From Sipunculus nudus (lineage: Eukaryota; Annelida; Sipuncula; Golfingiida; Sipunculidae), in NCBI GenBank assembly GCA_026874595.1, contig CM049307.1, forward strand, positions 24,774,362-24,838,361: 64,000 bases of DNA, written 5' to 3'. Made by a program: the position numbers and the translations under genes. The notes beneath the pieces were generated by a model that saw nothing but the letters and a program-made list of their open reading frames with translations, was not told the DNA's origin and ran no database searches. Shown one piece after another: positions 3,115-24,210 of this stretch (position 1 is its first letter; each line of letters opens with the position of its first letter).

Positions 3115-6100
3115 ATGGAATCGAACAATATCAGAAGGGACAAGTCTAATGTTCCACAGCAGAAGGATGATGGGCCAGATGCGGGCTACTTAGATGCTAT
3201 CTCTGTCCGGGACAGCTTCGGCGACATGAAACGACAGGAAAAGAGGGTGACTTTTAAAGATACCAGAGATGACCGAGCGTCTTTCCAACCGAAGAGCAAA
3301 CAGACATTCTCAAAATCTCTGACGCAGTCGCATGGGGCGAGACAAAACGGTCATCTTCCGAGAACGCCTTTAGAAATTCAAGATTTAGCCCCCACAGATG
3401 GCAGTCAGACGACAAAAGAGCGACAGAGACGCCATGCCCAGGAGATTGTTGACCAGCTTGCTATGTTGTTATATTCAGCCATTTTACACGGGGAGCTGGA
3501 TTCGGTGAAAGAAATATATAAATACCGTCGTGTTGTTTTCGTCGACAAGGAATTAAACACTCCTCTACATGTAAGCGCAAAACGAGGCCAGCTAAGCATT
3601 TTACGGTAAGTATAGCTATAAATGTTTAAAGAAATGTTTGCGTGCATATAATGGTATAATATCAGTCATTGAGGACTCGAGTTCGTGTTTTACCAATACT
3701 ATGCATGATTATGTCAAGTAGGGGGAAATGTCCATTAAGTGAGGATTAAGGTACACTGAAACGTTAGACAATCTGGAAGAATGGTATGATAAGAATGATA
3801 GCAGAATGAATGGCAATAATTTTGGCAAGGAGCTGCGAATAGTCGAGATATCATATCAATGGAATAAGAATATGATATTTTATAACAAGATAACATTAAT
3901 CAGATACTATTTGTATTCATGATGCATTAAACTTTAGAATGAAATAAAGAATTTAGTTACAGTGCCACCTCGCTCGACGACTTGACTGTTGTAGTTAGAC
4001 GTACACTGCCACCAGTTCTCAATAGGACCAGTTAAAATTTAGACGACCACACCATACCATTCAAGTAAGACGCAGTGAAAGCACTGCGAAAACAATCATT
4101 TTTGAGACCAAGACCAAGACCCGGCTCGTCAAAGACTAAGAAAGAGACAAAAACTTGTCTTCTTGAGTGTTCCTAGCCCCCTGCTTATAAAAGCTGCATG
4201 CAGGCTTAATATTAACAATATCCTTCTAATTATATGATTTCCTGTACACAAACAGGTCCTGGACATGTCCCTTAAAAATAAATAAAAAATATGCCTAGTA
4301 CATAAAATGACGGTTTAAAGAAAGGAAAGAAAAACATCTTTATCGTAGAGTCAGATGTAGAATCAATTGCTTAAGAAATCCATGAATTGTTTTACCGTGC
4401 TCCTGTCACAGAGAATTATCTAACTAGGGAAATTAAGATTTAATTGTTTAAATGCAATATTGTAAAACATGAACTTTGCGAAGCCAACTTAAACTTTTAT
4501 AAATTACTCAAAGATGCATTCATAACTTCATGCTAGCTCAACCTATATCACCGGTTGTTCTTATGCAAAAATTAACATAAGCCAGCACATAAAAAGGGTG
4601 AAAGTTGACCCACATGCAAGATCTGGCTTCATGCAGGGCGTGCACGGACATTAAGCTCAGTTCTTGAAAACCAAAAGAAACTGTTCAAGTATTAAGGAAA
4701 CAAACGATACCAACAAGCAACGAAACATTTTGCAGACATAATTTAGTCGCATTCTCAACGGCGGAGCAGTGCGTGTCGTGTTTTATCCACCAAGAACAAC
4801 ATTATAGGACCTACCTTAAGTCATTACGAAAAATATAAAAGCAGTCCGAGACCGCTTACTTACTTTCGCCAGGGTTAGTGCTACATGGGAAATATATCAA
4901 TACAATCATGCGTGTGATGGTTCATCGGTGCATCGGTGGGCTAGAACAAACGGCCTCTAAATTATTTTAACTCTCTGAACCTTGGCAAGGATAAACACAT
5001 TGTCCTGTGTCATTGTTACAGAAAGATAATATGCTAATAAATATTTCCTCACAAAAATGTAATAAACTGGTGTTTGTGTATCACCCTTGCCCCCCACAGA
5101 ATAAACAACCAAACAACTAAATATGATAGAAAATAAATGTCTCTCTGATGGAGGCATAAAGAAAAAACACAGTCTCGTGTTTCGAGATAGGCGGGCTTTT
5201 GAGAATGCATTGATCAGACCATGAGACAAGACAGACTGAGCCCTATAAAATATCTTGACACCGGCAAAACAGTTCCTGCGAGAAGCACCTCGTATCATAG
5301 AACACTGTGCGTTTATGTAAGACACGGCTAGCCAGGTAACGATGCTACTTAAAGGGTCTGTTCAGACGTATGTATTAACTAAAAATAATTCCTTTGAACC
5401 TTTTAAAAAATAGCCAAGAAACGCACACAACCTGTTCGTTTTGTTTATAACATGCGGGGTATACCCGCAAATATTCTAGTCACATTCAGCAAGGATATCT
5501 GGCAGCAAGTTAGATTAGAGCCAGAGTTTCGCATACGGCTTAGTGACCTTTCAACTTTCGCACATGTCAACAAACCATCTTAGGTTTAATGGTTTTCTGT
5601 TTGTCAACACTCTTGTGTTCACTAACAGCTTGTATAACAACAAGCTTGTGCATCCATCACAGAAGCATTAATATAAAACCAATATGAAAAGAAATAACCT
5701 AGAGTTCATAAATATGCAAGGCGAGTATAAGCCAGGATTCAAGTTCTATAGAAAGGGTAGGTATATAACTAACTGGCTTTGATGAAACACCGGTTGACCC
5801 CGTTAGTATAGGATCCTATTATTGCATTGAAATATTTACAGGTGTCTTGCATTTATTAGTCCTGTCAGGGCTTTAGTATTTACGTTTGCTATTAAAATGG
5901 TTAAAATAAAATGTGAGTCCATGTACCGATAGACATAACTCAGTGTCAACTCATATGAAATAGTCGGCCAGGAGCCATAATTTGCCTCGAGTTGTAGTAT
6001 CTGTTCTAAGCGTCGGGACACCGCAAGAGTAAGTTTGATGACTCTAATTGTGGGAGGAATTATGTTTAAACCATTGGATCGACTGGGCCAGTCTAGTCAT

Positions 6101-7516
6101 TTATCTTGTATGGTTATAATATTCCCTCATATAACACAAGTGATTTTATGTTCCTGGTTCAATTGCCTGGACATTTGCGCTCATTTGTATAACTGAACAT
6201 GTAATACGAGTGATCCCCACCCATGACAAACTAATGTTGCCATGTTCCCATCTATAGGGGCGTGATTAGTATATCAGATATATACATGTCTGTTTCATTC
6301 GCTTTACCCGGGCAAATCTTCCTGGTCACGTAAAATATCGGACTCTCAGCATTCTTCTCATCTCCCTCTTTGTAACGCGTGCCAAGCGATCATAATGAGT
6401 GATTATATGGTGGCGCGCAACTACACGTTAACTACAACACGGGGTGTAGCGAAACGTGACTAATCAACTTGTTCTGCAGGTGGCTTTTGAAGTATTCCTA
6501 CATCCCGGTATCGATGAAAAATGACAGTAAGGAGACGTGTTGCCACCTCGCTGCTAAACACGGACACTTCAAGTGTCTGAAGGCGGCGGTGTCTAGTAAG
6601 ACTGCGACGCCTCTCACTTTGATGTGTGATAAAGATAACCAGGGAATGACCGTCCTTCACTATGCCGCCATCTTGGGTCGTGACGACATGGTCACGTGGC
6701 TTGCTGACGATTTTGGAAAGACGCTGTGTTACACAAAAAACCATGAGGGTCAAACACCCCTGCATTTTGCTTCTGCACGAGGTGAGCATTCAACTGCATT
6801 TTTTTTCATTTTCAGAAAGCCTTTGTTGTCAATTTTAAATATCATCACATAGTTACAGGGGTGGATCCAGGATTAAGGGTGTGGTGTGTGTGTGTGGGGG
6901 GGGTCCAACCCAGAAAGACCAATGAAAAACCTAAAAAAAGGTCCCCAGATCTGGAAAGGGGGGGGGGGGGGGGGTCCAGGCTGCAAAAGTTTGTCTGAAA
7001 ACTTTCAGAAACGTTCATTAGGATGAAAAAAAGGGGGGGGGGGAGGGTCCGGACTCCCTAGACCCCCCCCCCCCCCCGGATCCGCTTCTTAGTTCGACAT
7101 CAAAGTGGATGAGAAAGCGCCTTAAGTGCTAATATGTGGTGAAAAGAACCAACATTTATATTCTACAGCCATCTGTGCTCTTCTGGGTCTTGTGACCACG
7201 TGACTTGGCGTCTTCCATCGGTCATCATTTGCCAACCGCACTTTGATAGTTGTTTAGAATATTAATGACATTTAGCATCCAGTCATCAGTTTAAAATGTA
7301 ATTATTTGTGAATTAGAACGAAGAACTTGATCATCATCAGTGGGATTGTGAAATAATGTTTTTTTTCTGTTATTGATATTATAACATTGCTCAAACTACA
7401 TTTTGAAAGTTATGATTTTAGTTTGATTCTTGGTATTTATCTCTTTGATCTGCCAGTGCATAGCAAAATATTGCTAAATAGCACCATTTGTTCAAACAGA
7501 CTATAATATATATATT

Positions 7517-7594
<78 letters not shown>

Positions 7595-9864
7595 GTATCT
7601 GAATCTGTATACCGTATCATTGTATTTTATTTCAGGTCATCCCAAGTGTGTCCAGATACTGGCGAAAGCAGGAAAAGTTTCAGTGGATATTAAAGACAAA
7701 ACAGGTGGAAGTTCCCATTGTACCACCAATACACTTGTGGATTGTAAAATATATTTTAGTATTTCACTTAAACATTAAATATGTTAATTTGTCCATATCG
7801 CTTGAGCTCTGTGCAAAAGAATGCATGTTAACTATCATAAAATTACATTATATGTCTTTAACTCAGGGCTCGTTATTAGCAAAACTTTCTACTGGACAGT
7901 GGTGTCCGTAAAGGCAGCAACGTTTACGGACTATATAAGATTTGACAGGATCCTAGCATGTTTTAATTAATATTCTAAAGACCGTAGACAAGCAACTACG
8001 TGTATGCGCCGAGTCAGAAGGGCAGGGGTAAAATGGGGCATGGGATGTCTCTTGACGTGACAGCCCTCCAAATTTGTATCATCAAAGATACCAAACTGTA
8101 CCAAGACGCACGGACAGACGAAACAAAAAAATGATTGTAGGTGGCACCACTAGTCATGTGTTCAAGATAAAGCTATCAAAGATCTTTAGGCATGTAATAT
8201 CTCAGGCTGATACATCGAACCACCCCTGAAATATATATGATTGTTATGTGCCACCAACTTGTGTATGAGAAAGCCATCTAATATGGTTGAACGTGCCGAA
8301 TTTTTAGCTGACACGTTGAACCACTCTGGAGATATACGTGATTTTTCAATAAAACAGACCTACAGCTTTACGCCCGATGACATTGACTAAAGGTGGCGCT
8401 ACCAGTCTTTCATACAAGGTAAAGCAACCCAAGATCTGTGGACATTGGGTGGATACACCAAATCACTCCTTAGATAAATGCGCTGATGTATTTTACGAAT
8501 TTGTGGATGTAGGTGGCGCCACAAGTTATGTGTACAAAATAGATGGACGTACAAAATTTCAGGTCGATAGGTCTTGTATATAAGATAAGGTATTCAAGAT
8601 ATATGGACATGCAAAATTTCAGGCTGATACGTTAGACCACTCCTGAGATAAATGCATGGATGTATTCTTACGAATACGTGATTGCAGGTGGACGAGGATC
8701 TAACCAGAATGGATGAACATGTAACATTTCAGACCGATTCGCAAAACCACTCCTTAAATAAGGGCATCCATGCATTCTACGATAACGTACAGTAGATTGC
8801 GCCATCAGTCTTGTCTACAACAATGCTATCGAAATTAAAGAAAAACATACAATATTTCTTGCCTATAGATCCATCTACACCGTCAGATGTGTTTGATTTT
8901 CAACCAAAACAGATCACATGTGAACACCATGCAAAAACGATTATAGATGGCGCCACCAGGTTTTTTAATGAGGTTATGGTATCAAAGATTTATGGACACT
9001 ATGGACAAAATTTCAGGAGGATACATCTCCTGAGGTAAAATTGCAACGATATATTCTATGAAGATATGTGATGTAAGTGGCGCAACTTATTATGTGTACA
9101 AGAAACCTACAAGATGGATGTACATGCCAAATGACAAGCTGATGCATTTAACCACTCCTCAAATATAAGCAATTTTCACCCAAACAGACTAATGGACGCC
9201 ACGCAAAAACAATGGCAGATAGCGCTACCACCCTTGAATGTATGATAAAGGTATCGGAGATCTATGGGCATGCGCATTTTCACCATAATACATCAAACCA
9301 CTCCTTAGATATGTGCTATTATCACTAAAATAGACGCACAGATGGACACTACGCAAAAGGGATTGAAAGTGGTGCCGTTTCGGCGGATACCATTGCTAGC
9401 TAATTTCGAGCACTGCTGTCCCTTCCTTATCAGGTTGAATTTAATCACCAGCGCAGCAGATAACAGGAAAAAATTGTGAATCAGTCTTCAAATTTGAATC
9501 GAAAAAGGATATAATTGAAATGAGATGCTTTCTTGTGCGGGCGAGACACTCCCTATACATGCTTAAATGGGTCTTTCATTCCTATATTGTATATATTTAG
9601 TTGAACTGTCTTATAGCTCATATTTTCATTCTAACCCTTTTTGCTTTGCCCTTTATAATATATAAAAGGGGTTTCAGTGCCTCCTACCCTAGGAATATTG
9701 TAATTGATGAATTAATAAACAGTTTTATTTTCGATTATTCATATTACAACTTATACAATTTTTAAGTCAAACAGTCACAACATAATTTTATTACTTTTAG
9801 CCTTTTGGAAGCAATACAGAAAATATTTTTATAATGATTGATAATAATAATAATAATAATATTA

Positions 9865-9914
<50 letters not shown>

Positions 9915-10419
9915 TTTGTATTTCCCTTTAAAATGACTGAATTTTTGTTTGCTTTTTTGTATTAATTATTTTACACGTTTGTCATACCATTTCTATTCAT
10001 TTCCATCATTTTCTTTGGTATTTGCTGGTAATTATACAAATCAATCATTTATCACTTAAATAACATTGCAGGAGCTACAGCAGCATTTTACGCCGCACAA
10101 GAGGGCCGCCTGGATTGTTTACAAGCTTTACGTCACGTGACGAAATGCGACTTAGGATTGGCCAACAACCAGGGTCACAGCCCGCTCCACGTGGCCGCGC
10201 AGGCCGGTCACCTGGAGGTTGTACAGTTCCTTGTCAACCACACGGACACCCCAGATCTCAGCGCTAGAGCAAAAGATGGCGCCACGGTATTCCATTTGGC
10301 GGCAGGTAGGAATTTGTAACAACCAGGGGTGTAGCCAGGATTTACCGAATGTGTGTGTGTGTGATTTGGGGGGGGGGGAGGGTGAAAAACTGCAAGACTA
10401 CCTGCTGGGCATATAGTTC

Positions 10420-10460
<41 letters not shown>

Positions 10461-12541
10461 GCACACATGTAAAAAGAATCAACTCACTCAGAATTTCAAT
10501 ATTCTTATAATGTTAATACACAAAACAAGCGAAACAATGCAAGAGCACTGATAAAATTTGGGAATGGGTGAAAAAGAGTCGATGATTACAATCATCGCAT
10601 CAATTATTAGTTTGGAATCCATGAATCTTATCTCTTTTTTCTTAGTTATCTCATGACAGATTCTGAAATAATGTTCCCGGGATAGATCTCCGTGCATACA
10701 TTATTGCAGATGAAAGTGTAAAGAATGAAATTGACTGATATTTTAATGTTTTTGTTTTTATTATTTTCATGCTATATTTTGTTATAGCATCTAGTAATTT
10801 TAACTTCAATATTATATGCAAAATCGGATGGGTGCCCCCCCCCCCCCCCCCCCCCCCCGCGGCAACCTCTGGATACTCCCGTAACAACAGTAACAAATAT
10901 AACAAATGGTAGCATTGAATAACTTATATTGTTTCACAATAGATACATGTACATGTAATACATATATGGTGATGATACTAGGCGACATACAAGTAATTGT
11001 GGACGTATGCATTAATATTTCGGGGCCTTATAAACCTAAGTTAATGCATGATTGGCTGTCTATGTTACTGTTCTGAGAGAAAACCAGCTCAGATTGAGCA
11101 CAAATGATCAACAGCATATGGTTAAATACAACTCTGCCGAGGCGCCATCTAGATGTGGTCTATTGAATAAGCAAGCCGTTGACACCCGCCGTTAAACACA
11201 TGCAGGCAATGCGATACTTGGGCTAATCCTAGATTTTTTGTTTGTTTGAAAAAAATCATTTGACCGCACTGCTTGAATGCACTGTTGTATTATCCACATG
11301 CTATCACACTGACAGATATCGTGAAAATTTTGTTAAGGTTACTGTCACAGGCTTATTCTTTGCATGTACTGAGGTCGGGTGTTTTTCCCCAATTTAATAA
11401 GTGATTATGAGATATACACTTTTCTGAAGTAATACTTTTCTATTTGTTAATGACATTTTATGCTGATTTATAGGTGCACATACATCAACAAAGCAGCTTA
11501 ACAAGTTTTTTTTTTATTTATAAACTTATTTATTTTACACGGATTGTACAAATAGTTAATCAAAGCACTCTATATGGCTCCGATGAAGGCGTTCGGTAGT
11601 CTGTATGGTTGGAGGAAACCGGAGAACCCGGAGAAAACCACCGGCCTTGGACGGGCAACTACAATCCACTCTCATAGCCACACCGGGGATCGAACGCGGG
11701 TCGCCAGCGGAGAGAGCCGAGCGTTTTATCCCTCGACTGTCCACGCCCCTTAGCTAGTTTTAAGTCCTTAAACTTGATTTTTCTTTCTAAAAAATACAGA
11801 ATAAGGAACTAATTTGTGAAGCTGAAGGGTAAAGAATGAATAAAGTGATGGATCATGATTGAAACTTGCAATTCATGGAATCTTTTGGTATATTAATTAT
11901 TTTTACTGACTACCTTCAGCAAATGGACACGCCGAGACAATCCGGTACATCCTGACGCTTGAAGGCGCTGGTGAAGCAGTGCGCATGCGTGATGTTAGAG
12001 GTAACAGCGCTGCACATGATGCGGCTGAACACGGCCATATGGACTGCCTCAAACTTATGATTGATGCTGGATTGGACATTTATCTCCGAGATGAGGTATA
12101 AAATTAAAATTTAATGTATATTTTCTTGAATTAAAAAAGAGCGACCAAGAGTTTAAAACGACTATTCACTCTGCCGACACAAGCTGACAGATGTACATTG
12201 TTCATATAGCAATACTAAATGAAAGTATTTTAAGCTGTTACCTGACGAAACGACGTAAATCGGAATCAACTTATCATTGCTGATTATGAGGAGTATCATA
12301 ATGATGGTGATTATTAATAGCATATTAACTAGCATATCATCCCCTATTGCATTGGGACAGGTCCGAGGGATTTGAGCCGGTTTTGTTCATGATTAGTTTT
12401 TTTTTACAGGGTCGAGGTAACATTAGCCGAGATTAGGCTACTGCTGGTCCGAGTTGACATGGGCTGAAATAAATGGTGTAGTTTTTGATAGATGGCCTCT
12501 ATGAGCCCTCAAATTTCTCAAGGTGAATGGAAAAGGTATTG

Positions 12542-12575
<34 letters not shown>

Positions 12576-12741
12576 CATTATTATTATTAATATTCATTTT
12601 TCCAGCTCGGCGACACGCCATATTCATTGGCACTTAGAAGCAGTAGCACGGAATGCGCGATGTACGTCAAGTCGCTGACTGGTGGCGAAGTCGTCGATCC
12701 AGATTCTGTCATGGGCGCAATCAGGAGCACTCTGGCATCAG
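3115..12741 (+). CDS. Espin-like exons 1-6: N-terminal extension and ankyrin domain
   Basis: Exon 1 encodes a polar basic N-terminus of about 110 residues that vertebrate espin lacks as far as I recall, then the first ankyrin-like repeat (AILHGELDSVKEIY, then NTPLHVSAKRGQLSILR). Exons 2-6 add successive repeats: CCHLAAKHGHFKCLKAA, MTVLHYAAILGRDDMVTWL, TPLHFASARGHPKCVQIL, AAFYAAQEGRLDCLQAL, SPLHVAAQAGHLEVVQFL, ATVFHLAAANGHAETIRYIL, SAAHDAAEHGHMDCLKLM and TPYSLALRSSSTECAMYV. That makes roughly nine repeats over residues 115-450. Several introns cut inside the helix-turn of a repeat just before a Gly or Ala-Asn codon in phase 1, as expected for serially duplicated ankyrin exons. Exon 6 ends in phase 1 at a donor embedded in the first unit of the adjacent minisatellite. 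Confidence 0.85.
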
Positions 12742-15700
12742 GTCTGTTTATACATCAGGTTTCTGATCAGGAGCACGCTGGCATCAGGTCCGTTTATACA
12801 TCAGGTTTCTGATCAGGAGCACGCTGGCATCAGGTCCGTTTATACATCAGGTTTCTGATCAGGAGCACGCTGGCATCAGGTCCGTTTATACATCAGGTTT
12901 CTGAACAGGAGCACGCTGGCTTCAGGTGTGTTTATACATCAGGTTTATGATCAGCAGCACGCTGGTATCAGGTCTGTTTATACATCAGGTGTTTGATCAG
13001 GAGCACGCTGGGATCAGGTCTGTTTATACATCAGGTGTTTGATCAGGAGCATGCTGGTATCAGGTCTGTTTATACATCAGGTGTTTGATCAGGAGCATGC
13101 TGGCATCAGGTGTTTATACGTCAGGTTTATGATCAGCAGCACGCTGGGATCAGGTCCGTTTATACATCAGGTTTCTGATCAGGAGCATGCTGGTATAAGG
13201 TCTGTTTATACATCAGGTGTTTGATCAGGAGCACGCTGGGATCAGGTCTGTTTATACATCAGGTGTTTGATCAGCAGCACGCTGGGATCAGGTCTGTTTA
13301 TACATCAGGTGTTTGATCAGGAGCATGCTGGCATCAGGTGTTTATACATCAGGTTTATGATCAGCAGCACGCTGGGATCAGGTCTGTTTATACATCAGGT
13401 TTCTGATCAGGAGCAAGCTGGTATCAGGTCTGTTTATACATCAGGTGTTTGATCAGGAGCACGCTGGGATCAGGTCTGTTTATTCATCAGGTTTCTGATT
13501 AGGAGCACGCTGGCATCAGGTCCGTTTATACCTCAGGTTTCTGATCAGGAGCACGCTGGCATCAGGTGTTTATACATCAGGATTATGATCAGCAGCACGC
13601 TGGGATCAGGTCTGTTTATACATCAGGTTTCTGATCAGGAGCACGCTAGGATCAGGTGTTTATACATCAGGTGTTTGATCAGCAGCACGCTGGGATCAGG
13701 TGTTTATACATCAGGTTTATGATCAGCAGCACGCTGGGATCAGGTCTGTTTATACATCAGGTTTCTGATCAGGAGCACGCTGGCATCAGGTCGGTTTATA
13801 CATCAGGTGTTTGATCAGCAGCACGCTGGGATCAGGTCTGTTTATACATCAGGTTTCTGATCAAGAGCACGCTGGGATCAGGTCTGTTTATTCATCAGGT
13901 TTCTGATCAGGAGCACGCTGGCATCAGGTGTTTATACATCAGGTTTATGATCAGCAGCACGCTGGGATCAGGTCTGTTTATACATCAGGTTTCTGATCAG
14001 GAGCACGCTGGCATCAGGTGTTTATACAGCAGGTGTTTGATCAGCAGCACGCTGGGATCAGGTCTGTTTATACATCAGGTTTCTGATCAGGAGCACGCTG
14101 GGATCAGGTCTGTTTATTCATCAGGTTTCTGATCAGGAGCACGCTGGCATCAGGTGTTTATACATCAGGTTTATGATCAGCAGCACGCTGGGATCAGGTC
14201 TGTTTATACATCAGGTTTCTGATCAGGAGCACGCTGGCATCAGGTGTTTATACATCAGGTGTTTGATCAGCAGCACGCTGGGATCAGGTCTGTTTATACA
14301 TCAGGTTTCTGATCAGGAGCACGCTGGGATCAGGTCTGTTTATTCATCAGGTTTCTGATCAGGAGCACGCTGGCATCAGGTGTTTATACATCAGGTTTAT
14401 GATCAGCAGCACGCTGGGATCAGGTCTGTTTATACATCAGGTTTCTGATCAGGAGCACGCTGGCATCAGGTGTTTATACATCAGGTGTTTGATCAGCAGC
14501 ACGCTGGGATCAGGTCTGTTTATACATCAGGTTTCTGATCAGGAGCACGCTGGGATCAGGTCTGTTTATTCATCAGGTTTCTGATCAGGAGCACGCTGGC
14601 ATGAGGTGTTTATACATCAGGTTTATGATCAGCAGCACGCTGGGATCAGGTCTGTTTATACATCAGGTTTCTGATCAGGAGCACGCTGGCATCAGGTGTT
14701 TATACATCAGGTGTTTGATCAGCAGCACGCTGGGATCAGGTCTGTTTATACATCAGGTTTCTGATCAGGAGCACGCTGGAATCAGGTCTGTTTATTCATC
14801 AGGTTTCTGATCAGGAGCACGCTGGCATCAGGTCCGTTTATACATCAGGTTTCTGATCAGGAGCACGCCGGCATCAGATGTGTTTATACATCAGGTTTAT
14901 GATCAGGAGCACGCTGGCATCAGGTCTGTTTATACATCAGGTGTTTGATCAGGAGCACGCTGGCATCAGGTCCGTTTATACATCAAGTTAATGATCAGCA
15001 GCACGCTGGGATCAGGTCTGTTTATACATCAGGTGTTTGATGTGGAGCACGCTGGGATCAGGTCTGTTTATACATCAGGTTTCTGATCAGGAGCACGCTG
15101 GCATCAGGTCCATTTATACATCAGGTTTCTGATCAGGAGCACGCCGGCATCAGGTCCGTTTATACATCAGGTTTCTGATCAGGAGCACGCTGGGATCAGG
15201 TGTTTATACATCAGGTTTATGATCAGCAGCACGCTGGTATCAGGTCTGTTTTATACATCAGGTGTTTGATCAACAGCACGCTGGGATCAGGTCTGTTTAT
15301 ACATCAGGTTTCTGATCAGGAGCACGCTGGCATCAGGTCCGTTTATACATCAGATTTCTGATCAGGAGCACGCTGGCATCAGGTGTGTTTATACATCAGG
15401 TTTATGATCAGCAGCACGCTGGGATTAGGTCTGTTTATACATCAGGTGTTTGATCAGGAGCACGCTGGGATCAGGTCAGTACATACATCAGGTTTCTGAC
15501 CAGGAGCACGCTGGCATCAGGTCCGTTCATACATCAGGTTTCTGATCAGGAGCACGCTGGCATCAGGTGTGTTTATACATCAGGTTTATGATAAGCAGGA
15601 CGCTGGGATCAGGTCTGTTTATACATCAGGTGTTTGATCAGGAGCACGCTGGTATCAGGTCTGTTTAAACATCAGGTTTTTGATCAGGAGCACGCTGGCA

Positions 15701-18700
15701 TCAGGTCCGTTTATACATCAGGTTTCTGATCAGGAGCACGCTGGCATCAGGTGTGTTTATACATCAGGTTTATGATCAGCAGCACGCTGGGATCAGGTCT
15801 GTTTATACATCAGGTGTTTGATCAGGAGCACGCTGGCATCAGGTCTGTTTATACATCAGGTGTTTTATCAGGAGCACGCTGGTATCAGGTCTGTTTATAA
15901 TTCAGGTTTCTGATCAGGAGCACGCTGGTATCAGGTCTGTTTATGCATCAGGTTTCTGATCAGGAGCACTCTGGCATCAGGTCTGTTTATACATCAGGTT
16001 TCTGATCAGGAGCACGCTGGTATCAGGTCTGTTTATACATCAGGTTTCTGATCAGGAGCACGCTGGTATCAGGTCTGTTTATACATCCGGTGTTTGATGA
16101 GAAGCACGCTGGTATCAGGTTTGTTTATGCATCAGGTTTCTGACCAGGAGCACGCTGGTATCAGGTTTGTTTATGCATCAGGTTTCTGATCAGGAGCACG
16201 CTGGTATCAGGTCTGTTTATGCATCAGGTTTCTGATCAGGAGCACGCTGGTATCAGGTCTGTTTATACATCAGGTTTCTGATCAGAAGCATGCTGGTATC
16301 AGGTTTGTTTATGCATCAGGTTTCTGATCGGGAGCACGCTGGTATCAGGTTTGTTTATGCATCAGGTTTCTGATCAGGAGCACGTTGGTATCAGTTCTGT
16401 TTACACATCAGGTTTCTGATCAGGAGCACGCTGGTATCAGGTCTGTTTATAATTCAGGTTTCTGATCAGGAGCACGCTGGTATCAGGTCTGTTTATACAT
16501 CAGGTGTTTGATCAGGAGCACGCTGGCATCAGGTCTGTTTATACATCAGGTTTCTGATCAGGAGCACGCTGGTATCAGGTCTGTTTATACATCAGGTGTT
16601 TGATCAGGAGCACGCTGGTATCAGGTCTGTTTATACATCAGGTTTCTGATCAGGAGCACGCTGGTATCAGGTCTGTTTATACATCAGGTGTTTGATCAGG
16701 AGCACGCTGGCATCAGGTCTGTTCATACATCAGGTGTTTGATCAGGAGCACGCTGGTATCAGGTCTGTTTATGCATCAGGTTTCTGATCAGGAGCACGCT
16801 GGTATCAGGTCTGTTTATGCATCAGGTTTCTGATCAGGAGCACGCTGGCATCAGGTCTGTTTATACATCAGGTTTCTGATCAGGAGCACGCTGGTATCAG
16901 GTCTGTTTATACATCAGGTTTCTGATCAGGAGCACGCTGGTATCAGGTCTGTTTATACATCCGGTGTTTGATCAGAAGCACGCTGGCATCAGGTCTGTTT
17001 ATACATCAGGTTTCTGATCAGGAGTACGCTGGCATCAGGTGTGTTTAAACATGAAGTTTCTGACCAGGAGCACACTGGTATCAGGTCTGTTTATGCATCA
17101 GGTTTCTGATCAGGAGCACTCTGGCATCAGGTCTGTTTATACATCAGGTTTCTGATCAGGAGCACGCTGGTATCAGGTCTGTTTAAACATCAGGTTTATG
17201 ATCAGGAGCACGCTGGCACCAGGTCTGATTATAGAACAGTTTAAGATTAAAAGCACGCTAGCAAGGTTCCCTGTTCAAATCTGCTTAAGACTGTAGGAAA
17301 GTAGTGAAATATATATGAACCCCCAAGGGTCAGCTCTAACTGTTATCTCTGATTTTCCATGAGTGCCTATCACAAATCTGAAAGTTGTAAAGTTTTATTC
17401 AAATACATTCATTGTCATACGGATTCCTTCATCCATAATCAGTAAAGAATGCCAGCTGTCCACATAACACGTTAACACTTATTTCAATGAACTTGCTGAT
17501 TATACATCAATGATCGAGGATTTTAAGTCATAATTTTTTTCTTTGTTTCAGACAATGTGCCGAATATGGTAGGTGATGCTATTTCATCGAGAAGTGTTGC
17601 TCGTCTGAAAAGAATAGGCATCGGAAGCAAGAAGAGGTCAAAGGTGAGTAGTTTCCTGCTCAGGCACTGAGTGTGACGAGGACATTAGTATTATAATACC
17701 TCGGTAATATCAAGATAAGCCACCACATATATGATGTAATGTTTTTAATGTCAGCTATTCACCTGCATTATGTGTAGAATTTATGTGGTCTGGTTTGTTA
17801 TGCATACATATTGATGGACTTTATAAGTAATTCCTGCAAAAAAAAAGGTTTTATAACATCCCCGTGACGGACGTACCAGCTTTTTTTATCTACAATCTGT
17901 CAAACACGGTAAATGTGTTAAGAAAAAAAGAACTTCTGGTAAGGTATGGGAAGCAGAGACAAGGCCCAATATTTACATGGAAGGGTTCTTTATGGGCTCC
18001 TTGCCAATCAAGTGTACCCTTGCGGAGCTGCCATTGCGGCATTACGGCTGTATCAATATACTGATATATCGATACATATCGATACCCCACATCGATACTG
18101 TTACCGATACGCCTTGCATGGTGTATCGTCGTTCAGATGAAAAAAAAAACAACTGCTCACAAATATAGATACAAAGGATACATCCTAACCTAAACTATAA
18201 TTAGAGTTATTAATAAAGCTTAAGCTGTTTTTTATTTCTTAAATTGACCTTTTAAGACTGAAATAACGTCACGTATTCTCGTGTGATCGACTGGATAAGA
18301 AATATATATTGTTATGGGGTGACATAAAAGCGGACCGAACTGTCTCGCTAGTGAAGCTTGCTTTTCTAGCGAAGCGGTTGGTGCGCCGAACATGTGCGCC
18401 ACCGACATGGGTTCGAAACCCGGATCGGCCCAACGTTTTCCCTTGAACAGTTTGTCTTCGTAACAAAATGGGGGCTGGTCCAGGATGACGGTAAAATTTG
18501 TGGCCCAGGGAATAAGCTCACCAAAGCGTGACTCCTGGGATAGTTAGTCTTGTTCTGATAGCAGAACACTCTTAAGAGGGGGTGTGTTACGGGGTGACAT
18601 AAAAGCGAACCGAACTGTCTCGCTAGTGAACCTTGCTTTTTTTTTGCACGCCGGACTTGTGCGCCACCGTTATGGGTTCGAATCCCGGAGAGGCCCAGAA

Positions 18701-21700
18701 GTTTTCCCTTAAAAATTTGTCTTCGTAACAAAAAGGGGGCTCGTCCAACGTGACGGTAAATTTTGTGTCCCAGGAAATAAGCTCACCAAAGTGTGACTCC
18801 TGGGATAATTAGTCTTGTTTTGATAGCCGAACGCGCATAAGAGGGGGTGTGTTAGGGGTGACATAAAAGCGGACTGAACTGTCTCACTAGTAAAGCTTGC
18901 TTTTCTAGCAAGCGGTTGGTACACCGGACATGTGCGCCACCGACAGTGGTTCGAATTCCGGATTGGCCCAACGTTTTCCCCATAACATTTTGTCTTCGTA
19001 ACAATATATATACAGTTCTCGGCGCTTAAATGACAAATGACATCGCGTGTGAGCGATGATAAACAAATATTACGGTCTTTTTATTTTTGTTTAAGACAAT
19101 ATTTATTCACAAAAATGATACACAAAGAACAATGAAGCGTATCGTCAATACTTATCGGGAATCGCTTTAAATATATCGCAATACATATTGTACCTGAACA
19201 GGCTGACCCATACCCAGCTATATGAGGCATGTTTTATGGATTCTGTTTTGTACTATTAGTTCGGTTACGCAATTTATTATGCTAAAATATATCATGAAAT
19301 ATGAATCGTTAACATTGCTAAATGAACGCGGAATACAATATAATAAGCACGTCCTTGCGTAAAATATACTACCACTCACGCATGATACGTCTAAAATGTA
19401 TCCATGCAGGGCCAGTTGCAGTTGCTTCTTTGGAGTAAGATTTGATATACAAAAGTGTCTGCGTGAGAAAAATTTATAAAACTCTCCCGCCCAAGGGCGT
19501 GTCTGCAAAGACAAACAAGCATGCATAGAGAGGACAGAAAGATATGGTTTTAAAATATCCACTGTAACTGCACACTGAGTACTGCACAGCACGAGAGTAC
19601 GAATCCGCTGGTTAGGGTTTGTGGGCGTCATAATCTGCCACCCACATTGCCCCCTGGCTTCTAAATACCCCAGCGGCGTAGGTATAAATGTAGTGATGAT
19701 GGTGTAACGTATATGCATGGAAAACTTGCGGGATATACGTAGGCCTGGAGAGTCAGGCGTAGAGTATAGGATTGCACATTAATTAATTATTAGTGACAAG
19801 AAGTGGCTGTACACTGGGGTGGTCAGCTAGAACATGATACGTTTGGTATGTAGGAACTAGGAACCCATGGGGGATAGGGCGAGTCAGGGGTCTGCTGCAG
19901 GACATACAAGTGTAGGGATTCGAGCTGGCTGGTCAACTCTACCATGTTTGCTGTACACCGCTCTTGCTCATAGTAAAGGTGTCTTACATGATCCATCCGA
20001 GTTTTTGGTTTATCGACGACCTTAAGAACCCAAAGCGAACCCAATAGTCGTTACAATGGTAATGTAAGTGCGTTCAAATAGGATGGACACGATTTTCAAG
20101 GCAAATTATTTCTAGGCACATAAACGAAGGTGATTTTGTGGTAAGGACTTCACGGAATAAGTACTCTTTAAAACATATGCATGTAAAATGTAAACAGAGG
20201 GTATGCAACAGATTTTGATTTTTTTAAGATGGACAGTGGAGAAAAGTAGTCCCGGCCGTCCCACACCGCCTTACTGGAAGAGGTTCGTTTTGAGTAGAAA
20301 CGACCTCTGGCGGGAGGATGAGGTAATAACTCACCGACTCTAAAGCCTGCATAAATGACCTGGTATAATGTCTCATTCATGAACAGAAGATTATTGCACT
20401 GTTAACAGCATGATTTACTCTGCAGAAAATAAAAGAGAGTAGCAAACCATCTAGGGATACATTCAAAAGTTCAAGTTCCGGGGGTGAAACTGTACAGGGG
20501 GAGTTCATATTGCGCGACCCTCAACATGGCAGACAGAACCGGGTGTTTACTCGCACACAGCGTAAGTGAAGCATCTGTCCGTTGTATCTTAATCATTTTC
20601 AGGATTTCAATAACATGAAATGATAATGAGGAAAGTATTCAAGAGGCTGATTTAATTTTCAAAAAGTCATTACTTTTTGTTACCGTGATTTGGATCGAGA
20701 CCGATAAGTACAGTTCTACGACATGTCCAACTTCTGACTACTTAATTATATCCATTTACATCATATTCCTGCGACCTGGCAATAGCATTTAATTCCCATG
20801 CCTTTAATATGTCAAGATTTTCCAAACTGATAATTTATATTTTTTATTAAGCGACGCTTCAGACTGTAGCGTTACTAGCCGAAGATGCTGTGACGTCATC
20901 GAGCAAAGAATCCGGACACGAAGACGCATCGACGTAAGTGCATTTCAAGTGTACACTTAAAGCAGAAGGAAATTGGTCTTAGAAACATTCAAATTTGTCA
21001 CTAAGATATTATTTATTTAGTATCGATCTGAACATTTGATAAGTTGTTAATTACACCTGAGTCTACAAAACGATTACATGTATATATAATCATACGACAT
21101 ACCTGATTCCAAAACTACTTATTTTAGCTCAGAGGACGATTCATCACACGGTGCCCATACAAGTAACTATCAACCTCGTACGTACCGGGCCATGTATAAA
21201 AAGAACTGCAAGACCAACGGGTACCAGTCGTCGTTAAAGAGAAGTGACATACAAATAGAAACTGCTCTGCCGCCGAATCAGCAAGAAAACAGGGCGGTAA
21301 CTAAAGATCTGCGTCTAACCAGGAAGGCTTGGTTCGCTGATGTCAGCGCTTTTGAGCGAGTTATTGATAAAAAAGCAAGGTCAACTACAGAAGTACTGAA
21401 CCCCCGAAATGAAAACCTACTACAGACAAAAGGAGAGGAAGGTAGGGAACGATTGAATGTTCAAGGAAAAGTAGGTAATGTTTCTATGGTGACGATAAAA
21501 GTTCCTCCTCCTCCCCGTGAGCCTGCGCCTACAACTCCCCGCAGGGAGCAACAGGAACAGCATAACCACTCCATGCATTATCGCACCGATATTCCAGCGA
21601 CTAAAAGCAGGGCCTCCGACACTGACCACATATACATGGATGTTACTGACTCGTACACCACCAGAGACCAGCTACCAACACATCCACCACCATTGCCTCC

Positions 21701-24210
21701 TACCCGCCAGGGGGCAGCAGTGTTTGTAGCACATGATGATGAAGATTTCCGGGATCCAGTTTACCAAGAATCATACTCTTCATCCATTCCTTCTACCAAT
21801 TTTACCAAAGACTCTTGTAAATCCCATGATGACGTCACCTGTGAACGGATAAATGTTTATCCACAATCAGACCTTCGCCTCAGAAATCCTGGTGCGTCTG
21901 ATAAAGATTCGCAAACAGGATTATCCACCCCGTTTACTGTTCCCAAAGAAACAAGCCCAACTCACACCGATGTCCCGGAACCGCCTCCTCCTCCTCCCAT
22001 TCTGCATCCCGTGAAATCATACCCATTAATCAAACGACTTCATCGCTCCGGCAACCACGCCAGAAGCAAGTCATTTGGGGTGCGGGAAAAGCCGCAAGAT
22101 GCGGACAATACGGCCGTTGAGGAAGGATCGCTACCCGGCGCACCCGCGTGCGCTCCAAAAATTGCTAAGATACGTGACATGCTTGACAGAAGTGGTATTA
22201 TTGCCAGCTGTTACAATAAATTCAAGTCTGAGGCTGCCAAAAGAGGTGACTTTATGGATTCAGAGAACCAGACCGCCGATCCAGCATCAGGTCTGGCGCA
22301 CAGGCACGCGCAACCAGCATTGTTATCTTCTCATAATGAGGCACATCATGGGTTTTACCATGGCTTTTCCAAAAATGATTCAAATGCACATGAGAACAAT
22401 GACGCTGGCACATCTACACGAAGTGCCAAGGCTTTGCAACGCAAGGAGTCCTTCAGAATCAAGTACAGTGAAGGTAGGGAAAACCCACTTTAATCAACCA
22501 GACTCAAGATTAACAATGAGGACCAGTTCATTATCTCAATGATGTAATCAAATTCCACAATTGTTATCAAAGGAGCGAGACATTCACTTGGTATACGGGA
22601 AACTTTATATCCCTTCACCAGAGATAACTGATGAAGGGATTGAAAATTTCCACGAATGCTATGAATCCCCCTACTCTCTGTTCGTCAAATCAATTCATTA
22701 TTGCTTCAGCTACTGCACTTTAAGTGACAGCTTTTTTGGGTCTTACGGTACACATTTGGGTGTTTGTGGGGCGATTCCACCGAAAAAAAACTTTTTTTTG
22801 TATGTGGCCTTACCTTGAATACATGTGCATGTAGCGACAGTCATAAAAGCGATTGCGAATCCCAGTAGTTGGCAGAAAGCCAACACGGCAGCAGTGCTTC
22901 TAAATACGCCAGCGGCGTGGGTATAAATTTATGTAATGAAGAGAGTTATGTAGTCGTTCAGATATATGTGTTGGGTAAGCATTGTTCCAAGGCCTATAAC
23001 ATAAACCCGGGTGATTTTATGTCAACGACTTCACGGAATAAGAAAATTTTGTAAGCATACGCGTGTGAAATGTAAACAGAAAGAGAGTCCTGGTGACGTA
23101 ACAAATTTTGATTTCGAATGGAAACGACATCTTGCGGAAATTTTTGCTCAATGGTCGGACCCGACACCCTTGAAAAAACCCTATAAGCTCAGATAGACAG
23201 TCATTGGTTTCAAAATCAAACCGCTTCAATTAAATGCAGTCCCCAGTCCTGGCTAAAAAATGTCTTGCTGGCACCACCTGTTATACAACTCTGTGAGGTA
23301 AAGATTAATACAGCGAATGATCACAAGTTCATTGCATTTCGGTGGGTTCAGAGACTGTATACCAGAGGTTGTATTTAATGCTATTCTTTCTCGAAAATAG
23401 ATGCCATGCAGAGTCTGAGCGCGTCCTTGTCTAACAGAGCACAAGGCGGGTCTGTCTTACCGGACCCTCGTTCCGGCAAGCTTTATGAGTTCAACCCGGA
23501 CCCACCAGCTGAACTGGAGATCTTCTTTAAGGTGAGAATGACTTTAAAGGCAGACATTAAAGTGAGACATTTTGCCATCCTCATACATACAGTGGAACCC
23601 CACACTTACCACCACCTCCAGGATTGATCAAGTCGTCTCAATTAGGGGTGGTCGTATTTGGGAAATTCTAAGTTACCTGGATCATATATTCGGGACCAAG
23701 TAAAGTTGGCGTAATAATGGGGCGATCGCAATTGTGTGGTGGTCGCAGGATGGAATTCTACTATATACATTTTTTTTTTAAATTGCAGAGGCTTTACTGT
23801 TAAAAAAAGTAAACAAGAAACGTAAATCTAGGGTTTTATGACTGTGACAGTGTTGCGCAATATATATGTCTAAAGTTTACTAAACTTACTTATTTCATAA
23901 TGACTCTGCTGTTTCATCGGAATTTTTAATCCCGAGATTACGAGACGTATCGTTTTAATGGAACCTCTCGTACCCTGTTTCCCATACTACAAATTCATGT
24001 AATACAACAACTAAATGAATAAACTTCATTAAGTGTAAACGAAATTCTTAGAGGGAGGTCGCAGAATGCTCAGTAGAGAAACAAAACTGCCAAGGAAATA
24101 GTTAATATAACAATTTATAATAATCTCCATGTTATGTTAATGTTTTAATTTCAAATGAAAGCATACATCTTTATGTTCCATTATAGAAAAGAAGAGGAAC
24201 AGAATTCTGA
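3115..24210 (+). CDS. Espin-like ankyrin-repeat actin-regulatory protein, complete 12-exon gene
   Basis: Exons 3115-3605, 6480-6781, 7636-7704, 10072-10305, 11920-12095, 12606-12741, 17552-17643, 20426-20561, 20852-20933, 21128-22473, 23401-23531 and 24187-24210 join with consistent phase at all eleven GT-AG junctions, giving 3,219 bp (1,072 aa plus TGA). The start follows an in-frame TAA at 3094-3096. The ankyrin block runs co-linearly with vertebrate espin as I remember it: DKDNQGMTVLHYAA against DKDNSGATVLHLAA, and SAAHDAAEHGHMDCLKLMI against the espin TPLHDAAENGELECCQIL. Espins bundle actin and are cargo of class III myosins in hair-cell and photoreceptor protrusions; that role here is inferred from family. 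I see no clear WH2 motif and no canonical vertebrate-type actin-bundling module, so it may be closer to ESPNL. The last, very short exon is the least certain. Confidence 0.82.
3606..6479 (+). other. Espin-like intron 1
   Basis: Intron bounded by CG|GTAAGT and CTGCAG|G. Mostly unique AT-rich sequence; no repeat family or coding signal recognised. The minus-strand open frame at 4957-5325 has no recognisable features. Confidence 0.7.
6861..7085 (+). mobile_element. GGATCC-ended MITE, second copy of the 55.8-kb family, G-rich
   Basis: Starts GTGGATCCAGGATT and ends GGATCCGC, with several runs of 8-16 G. Shared internal blocks and order with the copy at 55806-56007 (opposite strand) show one family. 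It lies in espin-like intron 2, 80 bp after the donor. Confidence 0.7.
7519..7592. repeat. (TA)n microsatellite in espin-like intron 2
   Basis: About 37 uninterrupted TA units, ending about 43 bp before exon 3. Other TA tracts of similar kind lie at 10423-10459, 24473-24519, 32584-32630 and 56383-56426. Confidence 0.95.
8040..9400 (+). repeat. Diverged tandem repeat with GGTGGCGCCACC blocks (espin-like intron 3)
   Basis: Blocks like GGTGGCGCCACNAGT recur near 8140, 8391, 8513, 8690, 8797, 8947, 9077, 9217 and 9367, spaced about 110-180 bp apart (once about 250). Between them are ATCAAAGATCTATGGACAT, AATTTCAGGCTGATAC and CCACTCCTNAGATA. The same blocks appear in the hairpin-ended elements at 46.9 and 50.1 kb, so this is probably the tail module of that family expanded locally. 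Open frames inside are repeat by-products. Confidence 0.6.
9840..9912. repeat. (TAA)n microsatellite in espin-like intron 3
   Basis: Over twenty TAA units with one interruption. Similar trinucleotide tracts lie at 1707-1742, 12541-12593 (as ATT) and 26400-26431. Confidence 0.95.
10323..10876 (+). mobile_element. Possible element bounded by AGGGGTGTAGCCAGGATTT and a poly-C/TACTCCCGT end
   Basis: The left end and its GT and G runs resemble common marine-invertebrate elements that begin AGGGGTGTAGCCAGG. A long C run at 10837-10857, followed by GGATACTCCCGT, may be the right end. A (TA)n tract lies inside (10423-10459). The two ends were paired by proximity only. Confidence 0.35.
11505..11752 (-). 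mobile_element. tRNA-derived SINE with poly(A)-like tail
   Basis: Read on the minus strand, it opens with a tRNA-like head with a good B box (GCGTTCGATCCCC near 11700). It continues with the motif CTCCGGGTTCTCCGGTTTCC common to many invertebrate SINEs, and ends in TAAATAAAAAAAAAA at about 11507. It sits in espin-like intron 4. Conserved ends but no obvious target duplication. Confidence 0.72.
12718..17240 (+). repeat. Large minisatellite (about 46-bp unit, roughly 98 copies) starting inside exon 6
   Basis: The core unit joins ATCAGGAGCACGCTGGCATC to AGGTCTGTTTATACATCAGG and then TTTCTG. Units are 46 bp, with a 44-bp variant that reads CAGGTGTTTATAC. The first unit includes the last 24 coding bases of exon 6 and the genuine donor CATCAG|GTCTGT, so the array is an expansion of an exon-intron junction. 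Units near the right end are more diverged (GTTTATGCATCAGG, then degenerate copies to about 17240). Short open frames of 61-69 codons through it are by-products of the repeat. Confidence 0.97.
13921..14824 (+). repeat. Higher-order repeat (226 bp, four copies) within the minisatellite
   Basis: Nearly identical blocks begin near 13947, 14173, 14399 and 14625, spaced by exactly 226 bp. Each is five units, three of 46 bp and two of 44 bp. Copies this alike indicate recent block duplication, by unequal exchange or replication slippage, on top of the older unit-level expansion. Confidence 0.9.
17241..17551 (+). other. Unique remainder of espin-like intron 6 after the minisatellite
   Basis: About 310 bp of non-repeated sequence carrying the acceptor (tttctttgtttcag) of exon 7. 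The rest of this intron (12742-17240) is minisatellite. Confidence 0.8.
17552..20933 (+). CDS. Espin-like exons 7-9: basic/serine-rich linker
   Basis: Three small exons (17552-17643, 20426-20561, 20852-20933) follow the minisatellite intron and stay in frame. Exon 7 reads DNVPNMVGDAISSRSVARLK and then a lysine-rich run ending KKRSK. Exon 8 is serine-rich (SSKPSRDTFKSSSSGGET). Exon 9 ends in an acidic and serine stretch (VTSSSKESGHEDAST) that continues into exon 10. Each has a good acceptor (tttcag, ctgcag, attaag) and a GTGAGT or GTAAGT donor. No domain is recognised; a disordered linker between the ankyrin repeats and the proline-rich tail is the simplest reading. Confidence 0.75.
18046..19197 (+). 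mobile_element. Possible hAT-like element interrupted by the TRIM array
   Basis: Left flank 18046-18115 (TATCAATATACTGATATATC, then repeated CGATAC) and right flank 19137-19197 (CGTATCGTCAATAC, ATATATCGCAATACATATTG) are imperfect inverted copies. Such CGATAC/ATATCGCAATAC ends remind me of hAT-type non-autonomous elements. No clear 8-bp target duplication was found, so the assignment is tentative. Confidence 0.4.
18310..19003 (+). mobile_element. Tandem TRIM-like (miniature, non-coding) LTR element: three LTRs, two internal segments, tRNA-like LTR
   Basis: LTRs at 18310-18465, 18585-18730 and 18850-19003 begin TGTTA and end GTAACA. They are separated by two internal segments of 119 bp each. 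Three bases after the first LTR is TGGGGGCTGGTCCAGGAT, which matches the tRNA-Pro primer site of murine leukaemia virus (as I recall it) at 16 of 18 positions. AAGAGGGGGTG, a plausible polypurine tract, directly precedes the second and third LTRs. The LTR contains tRNA-like A-box (TAGCGAAGCGGTTGG) and B-box (GGTTCGAAACC) sequences about 43 bp apart. ATATAT flanks both ends, a possible but low-complexity target duplication. It has no protein-coding part; its movement would depend on another element. The copies are clearly diverged, so it is an old fossil. It lies in espin-like intron 7. Confidence 0.75.
19620..20330. repeat. Unclassified dispersed repeat, copy 1 (espin-like intron 7)
   Basis: CTTCTAAATACCCCAGCGGC near 19657 and GGACTTCACGGAATAAGTAC near 20145, with ATGTAAAATGTAAACAGAGG after it, recur in the same order at 22.9-23.2 kb, where the middle is shorter. 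A weaker match to the second half lies at 52.67-52.78 kb. A minus-strand open frame (20044-19823, starting MGSLWVLKVVDKPKTRMDHV) lies in the middle and could be a coding remnant, but I do not recognise it. Confidence 0.5.
21128..22473 (+). CDS. Espin-like exon 10: long proline-rich, disordered region
   Basis: This 1,346-bp exon encodes about 449 residues (roughly 573-1021). It has three poly-proline stretches, near residues 699 (KVPPPPREPAPTTPRR), 756 (PTHPPPLPPTR) and 856 ([12 protein letters not shown]), of the kind bound by profilin, EVH1 or SH3 domains. Such motifs are typical of espins. A more structured segment near residue 917 (KIAKIRDMLDRSGIIASCYN) looks amphipathic. Basic serine patches (SGNHARSKSFG, LQRKESFRIKYSEG) resemble AGC-kinase sites by pattern only. 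The donor is GAAG|GTAGGG. This is the longest continuous open frame in the window and anchors the reading frame of the gene. Confidence 0.85.
22860..23210. repeat. Unclassified dispersed repeat, copy 2 (espin-like intron 10)
   Basis: TTCTAAATACGCCAGCGGCG, then ACGACTTCACGGAATAAG and GTGTGAAATGTAAACAGA, match copy 1 block by block. The section between the blocks is several hundred bases shorter than in copy 1. Confidence 0.5.
23401..24210 (+). CDS. Espin-like exons 11-12: C-terminus
   Basis: Exon 11 (23401-23531) encodes DAMQSLSASLSNRAQGGSV and, after a short link, SGKLYEFNPDPPAELEIFFK. Exon 12 (24187-24210) adds KRRGTEF and TGA after a TTATAG acceptor. Phases agree (1 into exon 11, 0 into exon 12). 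I do not recognise a named domain. The compact aromatic and acidic segment followed by a basic end could be a short interaction motif. Exon 12 is short and rests on splice signals and frame alone; reading on from exon 11 without splicing would give a different tail ending near 23627. Confidence 0.65.
23588..23763. mobile_element. MITE, CAGTGGAAC family, copy 1 (espin-like intron 11)
   Basis: Begins ACAGTGGAACCCCACACTTA and ends with GTGGTCGCAGGATGGAATTC, an imperfect inverted copy. Internal GGTGGTCGTATTTGGG and GGGACCAAG blocks recur in copies 2 and 3. It starts about 55 bp past the exon 11 donor. Confidence 0.6.

What the first reader, a model, noticed from the sequence alone, without database searches (positions are those of the whole stretch)
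12700..17240. Minisatellite grown from an exon-intron boundary, with about 100 copies of a splice donor
The first repeat unit overlaps the last 24 coding bases of espin-like exon 6 and its donor CATCAG|GTCTGT. Most of the roughly 98 following units repeat this same junction, so the intron presents a long array of near-identical competing donors; phase shows the first is the one that joins to exon 7. The array is seen directly. Effects on splicing accuracy, U1 binding or allele-length-dependent expression are inference. I know of few cases where the duplicated unit of a minisatellite includes a functional splice site.
Basis: partly seen in the sequence, partly recalled or inferred. Interest (0 to 1): 0.8.

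Follow-up and report, generated by a model that had tools for sequence, protein, structure and literature searches.

The report
Junction-spanning minisatellite in espin-like gene
A short stretch covering the predicted end of one exon and the start of its intron has been copied about 99 times in an animal's espin-like gene, so the intron is full of spare splice-start signals; this looks like a large example of a rare but already described kind of repeat, and it probably does little harm to splicing.

Summary
The array is real: 12720-17233, 46-bp unit, 99 units (98 full), detected at one locus in the 1.43-Gb assembly. Unit 1 covers the last 22 bp of predicted exon 6 plus donor CATCAG|GTCTGT, and differs from the consensus by one synonymous base. 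Units carry two CAG|GT motifs, so the array holds 186, not about 100. Two of the 186 keep an open frame into exon 7: the first, and one 63 nt downstream; 182 stop inside the array, 2 in exon 7. The exon end is predicted, not shown: a weaker donor at 12681 also keeps the frame, though coding-like composition runs to 12741. Long minisatellites are common here: four arrays of 10 or more copies (period 10-100) in 200 kb.

Best reading: a very long mirage minisatellite, mostly neutral, with the exon-proximal donor used. New member of a known kind.

The parts
3115..3605 (+). predicted first coding exon (ATG) of the espin-like gene, donor ACG|GTAAGT
   Evidence: open frame; donor score 10.15; frame open with following exons
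6480..6781 (+). predicted exon 2, ankyrin repeats
   Evidence: ankyrin matches by sequence in the joined protein of exons 2-6; splice sites
7636..7704 (+). predicted exon 3
   Evidence: frame and splice sites
10072..10305 (+). predicted exon 4, ankyrin repeats
   Evidence: Pfam Ank_2 7.7e-25 on the enclosing frame
11920..12095 (+). predicted exon 5, ankyrin repeats
   Evidence: Pfam Ank_4 9.9e-9 on the enclosing frame
12606..12741 (+). predicted exon 6, 136 nt, acceptor TTTTTCCAG|CTCGGC, donor CATCAG|GTCTGT
   Evidence: frame open from the start codon through exon 7; donor score 6.31, U1 duplex -7.0 kcal/mol; alone it matches no Pfam family
12720..17233 (+). minisatellite: 99 units of 46 bp, unit = 22 bp predicted exon end + 24 bp intron start
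   Evidence: one locus found in the assembly
12720..12765 (+). unit 1, overlapping predicted exon 6 by 22 bp; one synonymous difference from consensus (ACT for ACG); identical to units 72 and 97
12742..12747 (+). native (first) donor GTCTGT
12805..12810 (+). second frame-compatible donor of the array, CAG|GTTTCT (score 1.66): would add 63 nt (21 aa) to exon 6
12682..12687 (+). rival upstream donor CTG|GTGGCG inside predicted exon 6, also frame-compatible
   Evidence: score 4.39, U1 duplex -4.3 kcal/mol; open frame
13360..14809 (+). central region (units 15-46) with a 5-unit higher-order repeat; one unit type occurs 12 times in units 15-45
   Evidence: lag-5 peak 0.931 and unit list; frames recur every 226 bp
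17239..17263 (+). decayed extra unit at the distal edge
   Evidence: local match score 20, reached by 0.9% of 97-bp background pieces
17552..17643 (+). predicted exon 7, acceptor TTTGTTTCAG|ACAATG, donor AAG|GTGAGT

Best explanation
This is a large junction-spanning minisatellite of the kind called a mirage. A 46-bp segment made of the last 22 bp of exon 6 and the first 24 bp of intron 6 was tandemly duplicated, probably by slippage or unequal exchange between the ATCAGG words that recur in it at 17, 17 and 12 bp spacing. It then grew and was partly homogenised to 99 units, lengthening an intron of roughly 340 nt (by subtraction of units 2-99) to about 4.8 kb. The exon-proximal copy stays the authentic donor because it is the one nearest the exon 6 acceptor, it is as good as most of the copies, and almost every other donor leads to a premature stop and would be lost to nonsense-mediated decay. 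The other copies are mostly silent decoys. Shown from sequence: the array, the overlap with the predicted exon, the frame consequences, the higher-order structure. Inferred: that the predicted junction is the real one, that the array grew from it, and that the first donor is used.
For: Array and units. Unit 1 exon part matches the consensus at 21 of 22 bases, the difference synonymous. Frame open over exons 1-7 with no stop when the first donor is used. Of 186 CAG|GT sites 182 stop within the array, 2 in exon 7, and 2 stay open. The native donor is the highest-scoring GT within predicted exon 6 and unit 1. The 60 bp before the donor are coding-like (1.2% of intron 60-mers and 0.8% of 39,760 sampled genome 60-mers score as high), whereas the intron half of unit 1 is intron-like. 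The genome is rich in long minisatellites. In amphioxus such arrays are reported not to disturb splicing (PMC3087553 abstract and passages, PMC3902484 one passage).
Against: No transcript and no orthologue from a related species was available, so the exon end and the direction of growth are not proven. The native donor is middling (pyrimidine at +3; score 6.31, rank 5 of the 7 gene donors scored). 18 of 355 array GT sites score higher: the nearest is CAG|GTCCGT at 12787 (6.63, though its U1 pairing is weaker, -6.1), and CAG|GTGTGT at 12925 scores 10.12. The scores rest on a recalled donor table. Human IFI6 shows that repeat donors can be used. An upstream in-frame donor at 12681 is not excluded, and espin homology ends next to it. 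Under the second-order model 12742-12800 is not clearly intron-like (7.9% of intron pieces score as high), as expected where the next exon-like half begins. Exon 7 does not join the large downstream coding frame (from about 21128) in phase with its best donor, so an exon may be missing from the model.
Confidence: 0.7

Rival explanations
1. The array is wholly intronic. Exon 6 really ends at 12681 (CTG|GTGGCG), 38 bp before the array, and the apparent overlap is an error of exon prediction.
For: 12681 keeps an open frame into exon 7. The espin match ends one residue before this point (query residue 83 of 135), and exon 6 alone matches no Pfam family. Another donor of this gene (exon 5, score 2.33) is weaker than 12681.
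Against: Score 4.39 against 6.31 and U1 duplex -4.3 against -7.0 kcal/mol. 12682-12741 is coding-like: only 1.2% (first order) or 1.4% (second order) of intron 60-mers score as high.
Confidence: 0.14
2. Repeat donors are used regularly, as in human IFI6, giving a set of longer exon 6 isoforms: one in frame (+63 nt, 21 aa) and the rest unproductive, so that array length or sequence tunes gene output. (Not exclusive of the best explanation of origin.)
For: The two CAGGT blocks are among the least variable of the unit (12 of 980 cells off consensus; 2 of 46 circular shifts, the true position included, are as low). 18 of 355 array GT sites score above the native donor. Precedent IFI6 (PMC4526556 passages).
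Against: Units are not independent, so the low variability is weak evidence. Amphioxus mirages are reported to splice normally. Distal units lie far beyond normal exon length (inference), and 184 of 186 sites give premature stops.
Confidence: 0.13
3. The array arose in the intron first, and exon 6 later moved its donor into the first unit after losing an older upstream donor.
For: A decayed unit lies at the distal edge. A 13 of 14 match to the unit lies near exon 7 (17496-17509). In-frame GT sites exist upstream (12642, 12681).
Against: The exon half of the unit has coding-like and the intron half intron-like composition, though 5% of intron 46-mers show as strong a contrast.
Confidence: 0.1
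4. The intron itself was gained from AGGT-containing tandem duplications (Rogers model), with the repeat supplying both splice sites.
For: Units contain AG|GT; in fission yeast introns are reported over tandem copies of a 24-bp AGGT segment (PMC4974935 passages).
Against: The exon 7 acceptor TTTGTTTCAG|ACAATG lies outside the array, and array CAG sites make poorer acceptors than it (pyrimidine fraction 0.29-0.64 against 0.93 for exon 7; but the gene's other acceptors range 0.50-0.71).
Confidence: 0.03

Closest known systems
Mirage minisatellites of amphioxus (Adh3, globins BflGb6 and BflGb9, troponin C, PGBD5)
   Same: Minisatellite-like tandem repeats whose unit spans an exon-intron boundary and repeats its splice signal; concerted evolution inside the cluster (PMC3087553 abstract and passages; PMC3902484 one passage).
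   Different: Here 99 units and 4.5 kb, against 6 and 3 units in the two BflGb6 haplotypes; 46-bp unit (Adh3 10-72 bp, globins about 150-160 bp). The host is probably not a cephalochordate: 1.43 Gb with contigs of 80-111 Mb among the ten seen, which is larger than amphioxus genomes as I recall them. Transcripts and instability untested here. The founding Adh paper (Canestro 2002) was seen only as a reference; it is not held.
[quoted passage not shown] 1995)
   Same: Repeat units serve as splice donor sites at an exon end.
   Different: In IFI6 two downstream units are used, giving three mRNAs (PMC4526556 introduction passage and reference list; the 1995 paper itself is not held, and was not read). 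Here use is unknown, and all but one of the downstream CAG|GT break the frame.
Intron gain by tandem duplication of AGGT-containing segments (Rogers 1989; fission yeast, ATP2A1)
   Same: Tandem copies containing AG|GT within a gene.
   Different: There the copies create a new intron; here an existing intron seems to have been lengthened (PMC4974935 passages).
Intronic VNTR of ABCA7 affecting splicing
   Same: Intronic tandem repeat with an effect on splicing.
   Different: I saw only the listing and the start of the abstract (PMC5954066); whether the unit includes an authentic exon end I did not check.

Membership tests
Mirage minisatellite | Tandem repeat whose unit spans an exon-intron boundary | tested here: met
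   Unit 1 covers 22 bp of predicted exon 6 and 24 bp of intron 6; the boundary itself is predicted, not shown by transcripts
Mirage minisatellite | Many copies keep the splice signal | tested here: met
   Donor A CAGGT in 93 of 98 full units, donor B in 92 of 98
Mirage minisatellite | Concerted evolution within the cluster, edge units excluded | tested here: inconclusive
   Homogenisation seen: 5-unit higher-order repeat, one unit type 12 times; distal edge decayed; but unit 1 is identical to units 72 and 97, so the exon edge is not excluded
Mirage minisatellite | Normal splicing in spite of the array | not testable with these tools
   No transcripts held
Mirage minisatellite | Length polymorphism or somatic instability | not testable with these tools
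   One assembly only
IFI6-type donor minisatellite | Downstream repeat donors used in mRNA | not testable with these tools
   Use needs transcripts; of 185 downstream CAG|GT one keeps the frame (12804)
Intron gained by tandem AGGT duplication | Acceptor also supplied by the repeat | tested here: not met
   The predicted exon 7 acceptor lies 318 bp beyond the array's end; a 13 of 14 unit match 42 nt before it does not reach it
Espin-like gene | Ankyrin-repeat domain related to espin | tested here: met
   Espin 5et0/5et1 E 4.6e-44 and 4.9e-44 over query 50-284 of 305; ten other chains, ankyrin proteins and designed ones, rank above, so the name leans also on the proline-rich downstream frame and recall

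The most novel reading that the evidence does not exclude
The array is a length-tunable splicing damper. Each extra unit adds donor-like sites that draw U1 snRNP and divert a share of exon 6 splicing into unproductive transcripts, with one in-frame 21-residue isoform, so that array alleles set espin-like protein output.
Probability: 0.06. Interest if true: 0.7.

Novelty: new member of a known kind. Interest (0 to 1): 0.36.

Why it matters
It is a natural experiment in donor choice: near-identical donors in a row at nearly fixed spacing, of which only the first keeps the message productive apart from one in-frame neighbour. Long-read RNA from this animal could measure directly how strongly position outweighs donor sequence. 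If the host is not an amphioxus, as its genome size suggests, mirage arrays are not confined to that group and may be worth counting in minisatellite-rich genomes: a rough calculation from the sampled array density, with assumed intron numbers and no selection, gives about 99 to 220 junction-overlapping arrays in this genome.

Tried and rejected
SINE origin of the distal edge: 17205-17420 matches only itself in the assembly, so no repeat family was found, though that search skips very common words. A paralogue or retrocopy that would show the ancestral junction: exon 6-7 protein finds only this locus. Selection on the donors: the CAGGT blocks are among the least variable (12 of 980 cells; there the 14 two-base deletions were counted as sparing the T of GT), but units are not independent, so I do not claim selection. 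Minus-strand function: no CAG|GT on the array's minus strand; no Rfam match at gathering score and no tRNA by ARAGORN in the window. A genome-specific donor model was not made; the donor table was recalled. The first joins used wrong ends for exon 5 and for exons 1 and 2 and gave stops; corrected. In one search the exon 8 donor was misplaced by one base and got no score; it is left out of the counts. The phylum of the animal was not determined; the COX1 search gave 9 of 11 matches with 577-578-codon frames that look bacterial. Papers sought and not held: PMC306954, PMC343271, PMC117041.

Literature searches behind the statements on precedent: (open-licence papers only). Passages of PMC2915984 and PMC3618361 only cite the 1995 IFI6 paper.

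Full report
What is there. Tandem Repeats Finder reports one long array at 12720-17233, period 46, 98.7 copies, 90% matches. My own wrap-around alignment splits it into 99 units, 98 of them full. The full units have mean pairwise identity 0.904 and 57 distinct sequences. There is a five-unit higher-order repeat (lag-5 identity 0.931, against 0.898-0.918 for the other lags up to 30), with one unit type present 12 times between units 15 and 45. Two searches of the own assembly (1.43 Gb, 153 contigs) found the unit at this locus only; they score only the best first-look candidates, here one each.

The gene. Predicted exons at 3115-3605, 6480-6781, 7636-7704, 10072-10305, 11920-12095, 12606-12741 and 17552-17643 join in one frame without a stop (1272 nt upstream of exon 6, no stop, open through exon 7). 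The exon 4 and 5 frames match ankyrin repeats, whereas exon 1 and exon 6 alone match no Pfam family. The joined protein of exons 2-6 matches espin structures 5et0 and 5et1 (E 4.6e-44 and 4.9e-44, query 50-284 of 305), although ten other chains rank above them. A frame with proline-rich stretches follows downstream (21090-22493; no Pfam match). The joint between exon 7 and that frame is not in phase with the best donor of exon 7, so the model is incomplete there.

The overlap. Unit 1 begins at 12720, inside predicted exon 6, and covers its last 22 bp and 24 bp of intron. The exon part differs from the consensus at one base, a synonymous change (ACT for ACG). Units 72 and 97 are identical to unit 1 over all 46 bp. 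Upstream exon 6 sequence does not resemble the unit beyond shuffles (p 0.16), so the edge is sharp. At the far end a decayed unit is visible at 17239-17263. A 13 of 14 match lies at 17496-17509; about 0.6% of 221-bp background pieces score as high, so chance is possible.

Donors. With a recalled metazoan donor table the native donor CAG|GTCTGT scores 6.31 and pairs with the U1 end at -7.0 kcal/mol. The other six donors of the gene that were scored range from 2.33 to 12.13; the exon 8 entry was misplaced by one base and is left out. In the array 355 GT sites were scored: 75, the native one included, reach the native score and 18 exceed it. The rest of the plus strand gives 113 of 3366 GT sites at that level, about 8.6 per 4.5 kb. 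CAG|GT occurs 186 times in the array, against about 4.8 per 4.5 kb elsewhere in the window and none on the array's minus strand. Each consensus unit has two: donor A is intact in 93 and donor B in 92 of 98 full units.

Consequences for the frame. If each of the 186 sites is joined to exon 7, 2 stay open (12741 and 12804, the latter adding 21 residues), 2 stop in exon 7 and 182 stop within the retained array. Of all GT sites in exon 6 and the array, four keep the frame: 12642, 12681, 12741 and 12804.

Is the exon end real? The main doubt is 12681 (CTG|GTGGCG, score 4.39). The espin match stops one residue before it and cannot decide. Composition favours 12741: with exon 6 left out of training, 12682-12741 scores as coding-like as only 1.2% (first order) or 1.4% (second order) of intron 60-mers and 0.8% of sampled genome 60-mers. 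The intron half of unit 1 is intron-like, though 12742-12800, which runs into the next unit, is not clearly so under the second-order model. An earlier version that had part of exon 6 in its training set flattered 12682-12719 (1.1% of intron pieces, against 3.1%). The contrast between the two halves also favours birth of the unit from a true junction over later recruitment of an intronic array, but it is reached by 5% of intron 46-mers, so it is modest evidence.

How ordinary is the array itself? In twenty sampled 10-kb stretches (200 kb), 17% of bases lie in arrays of period 10 or more. Of 67 rows of period 10-100, four have at least 10 copies, the longest 127 copies of 49 bp. A 99-copy array is thus ordinary here; only its place is special. 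A rough calculation without selection gives about 99 to 220 junction-overlapping arrays genome-wide; it rests on this small sample and assumed intron numbers.

What is known. Such arrays have a name. Tandem repeats spanning exon-intron boundaries in amphioxus Adh3 were called mirages. They are also found in globin genes BflGb6 and BflGb9, are unstable in length, and are reported not to interfere with regular splicing, although the authors note that the copies could act as cryptic sites (PMC3087553, abstract and passages). Troponin C and PGBD5 are further cases (PMC3902484, one passage). In human IFI6 two downstream repeat units serve as donors, giving three mRNAs (PMC4526556, introduction passage and reference list; the 1995 source was not held). 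Fission yeast introns over tandem copies of a 24-bp AGGT segment are reported in PMC4974935 (passages). The present case differs in scale and probably in phylum, not in kind.

Mechanism and verdict. The best reading is a very long mirage minisatellite, born by duplication between the ATCAGG words that recur in the junction, grown by unequal exchange, and tolerated because the spliceosome takes the donor nearest the exon 6 acceptor and because stray choices give messages that are destroyed. All of these steps beyond the sequence itself are inference. Regular use of downstream donors is the most interesting alternative; transcripts would settle it at once. Interest is moderate: a good natural test of donor choice, but a known kind.

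Noticed in passing
window 18310-19004: About 2.6 tandem copies of a 265-bp unit with a tRNA-like GGTTCGAAACC box, resembling a tandem SINE-like element downstream of exon 7.
   Followed up: no
G000 contigs C60, C61, C62, C66, C72, C74, C75, C89: Nine COX1-family matches with open frames of 577-578 codons on these eight contigs look bacterial, so the assembly seems to hold co-assembled bacteria.
   Followed up: no
L025 1-6192: 127-copy, 49-bp array at 97% match whose unit contains both CTCAG|AG and GTGAGT words; not examined for overlap with an exon.
   Followed up: no
window 17496-17509: 13 of 14 bases match the minisatellite unit 42 nt before the exon 7 acceptor: chance, or a relic of an older, longer array.
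   Followed up: partly
window 17643 to 21128: Exon 7 (phase 0 end) and the large downstream coding frame (needs phase 2 at its likely acceptor) do not fit, so an unrecognised exon or another exon 7 donor is likely.
   Followed up: no
window 12720-17233: Strand asymmetry over the array: GC skew about +0.15 to +0.17 and AT skew about -0.11 to -0.18 on the sense strand.
   Followed up: no
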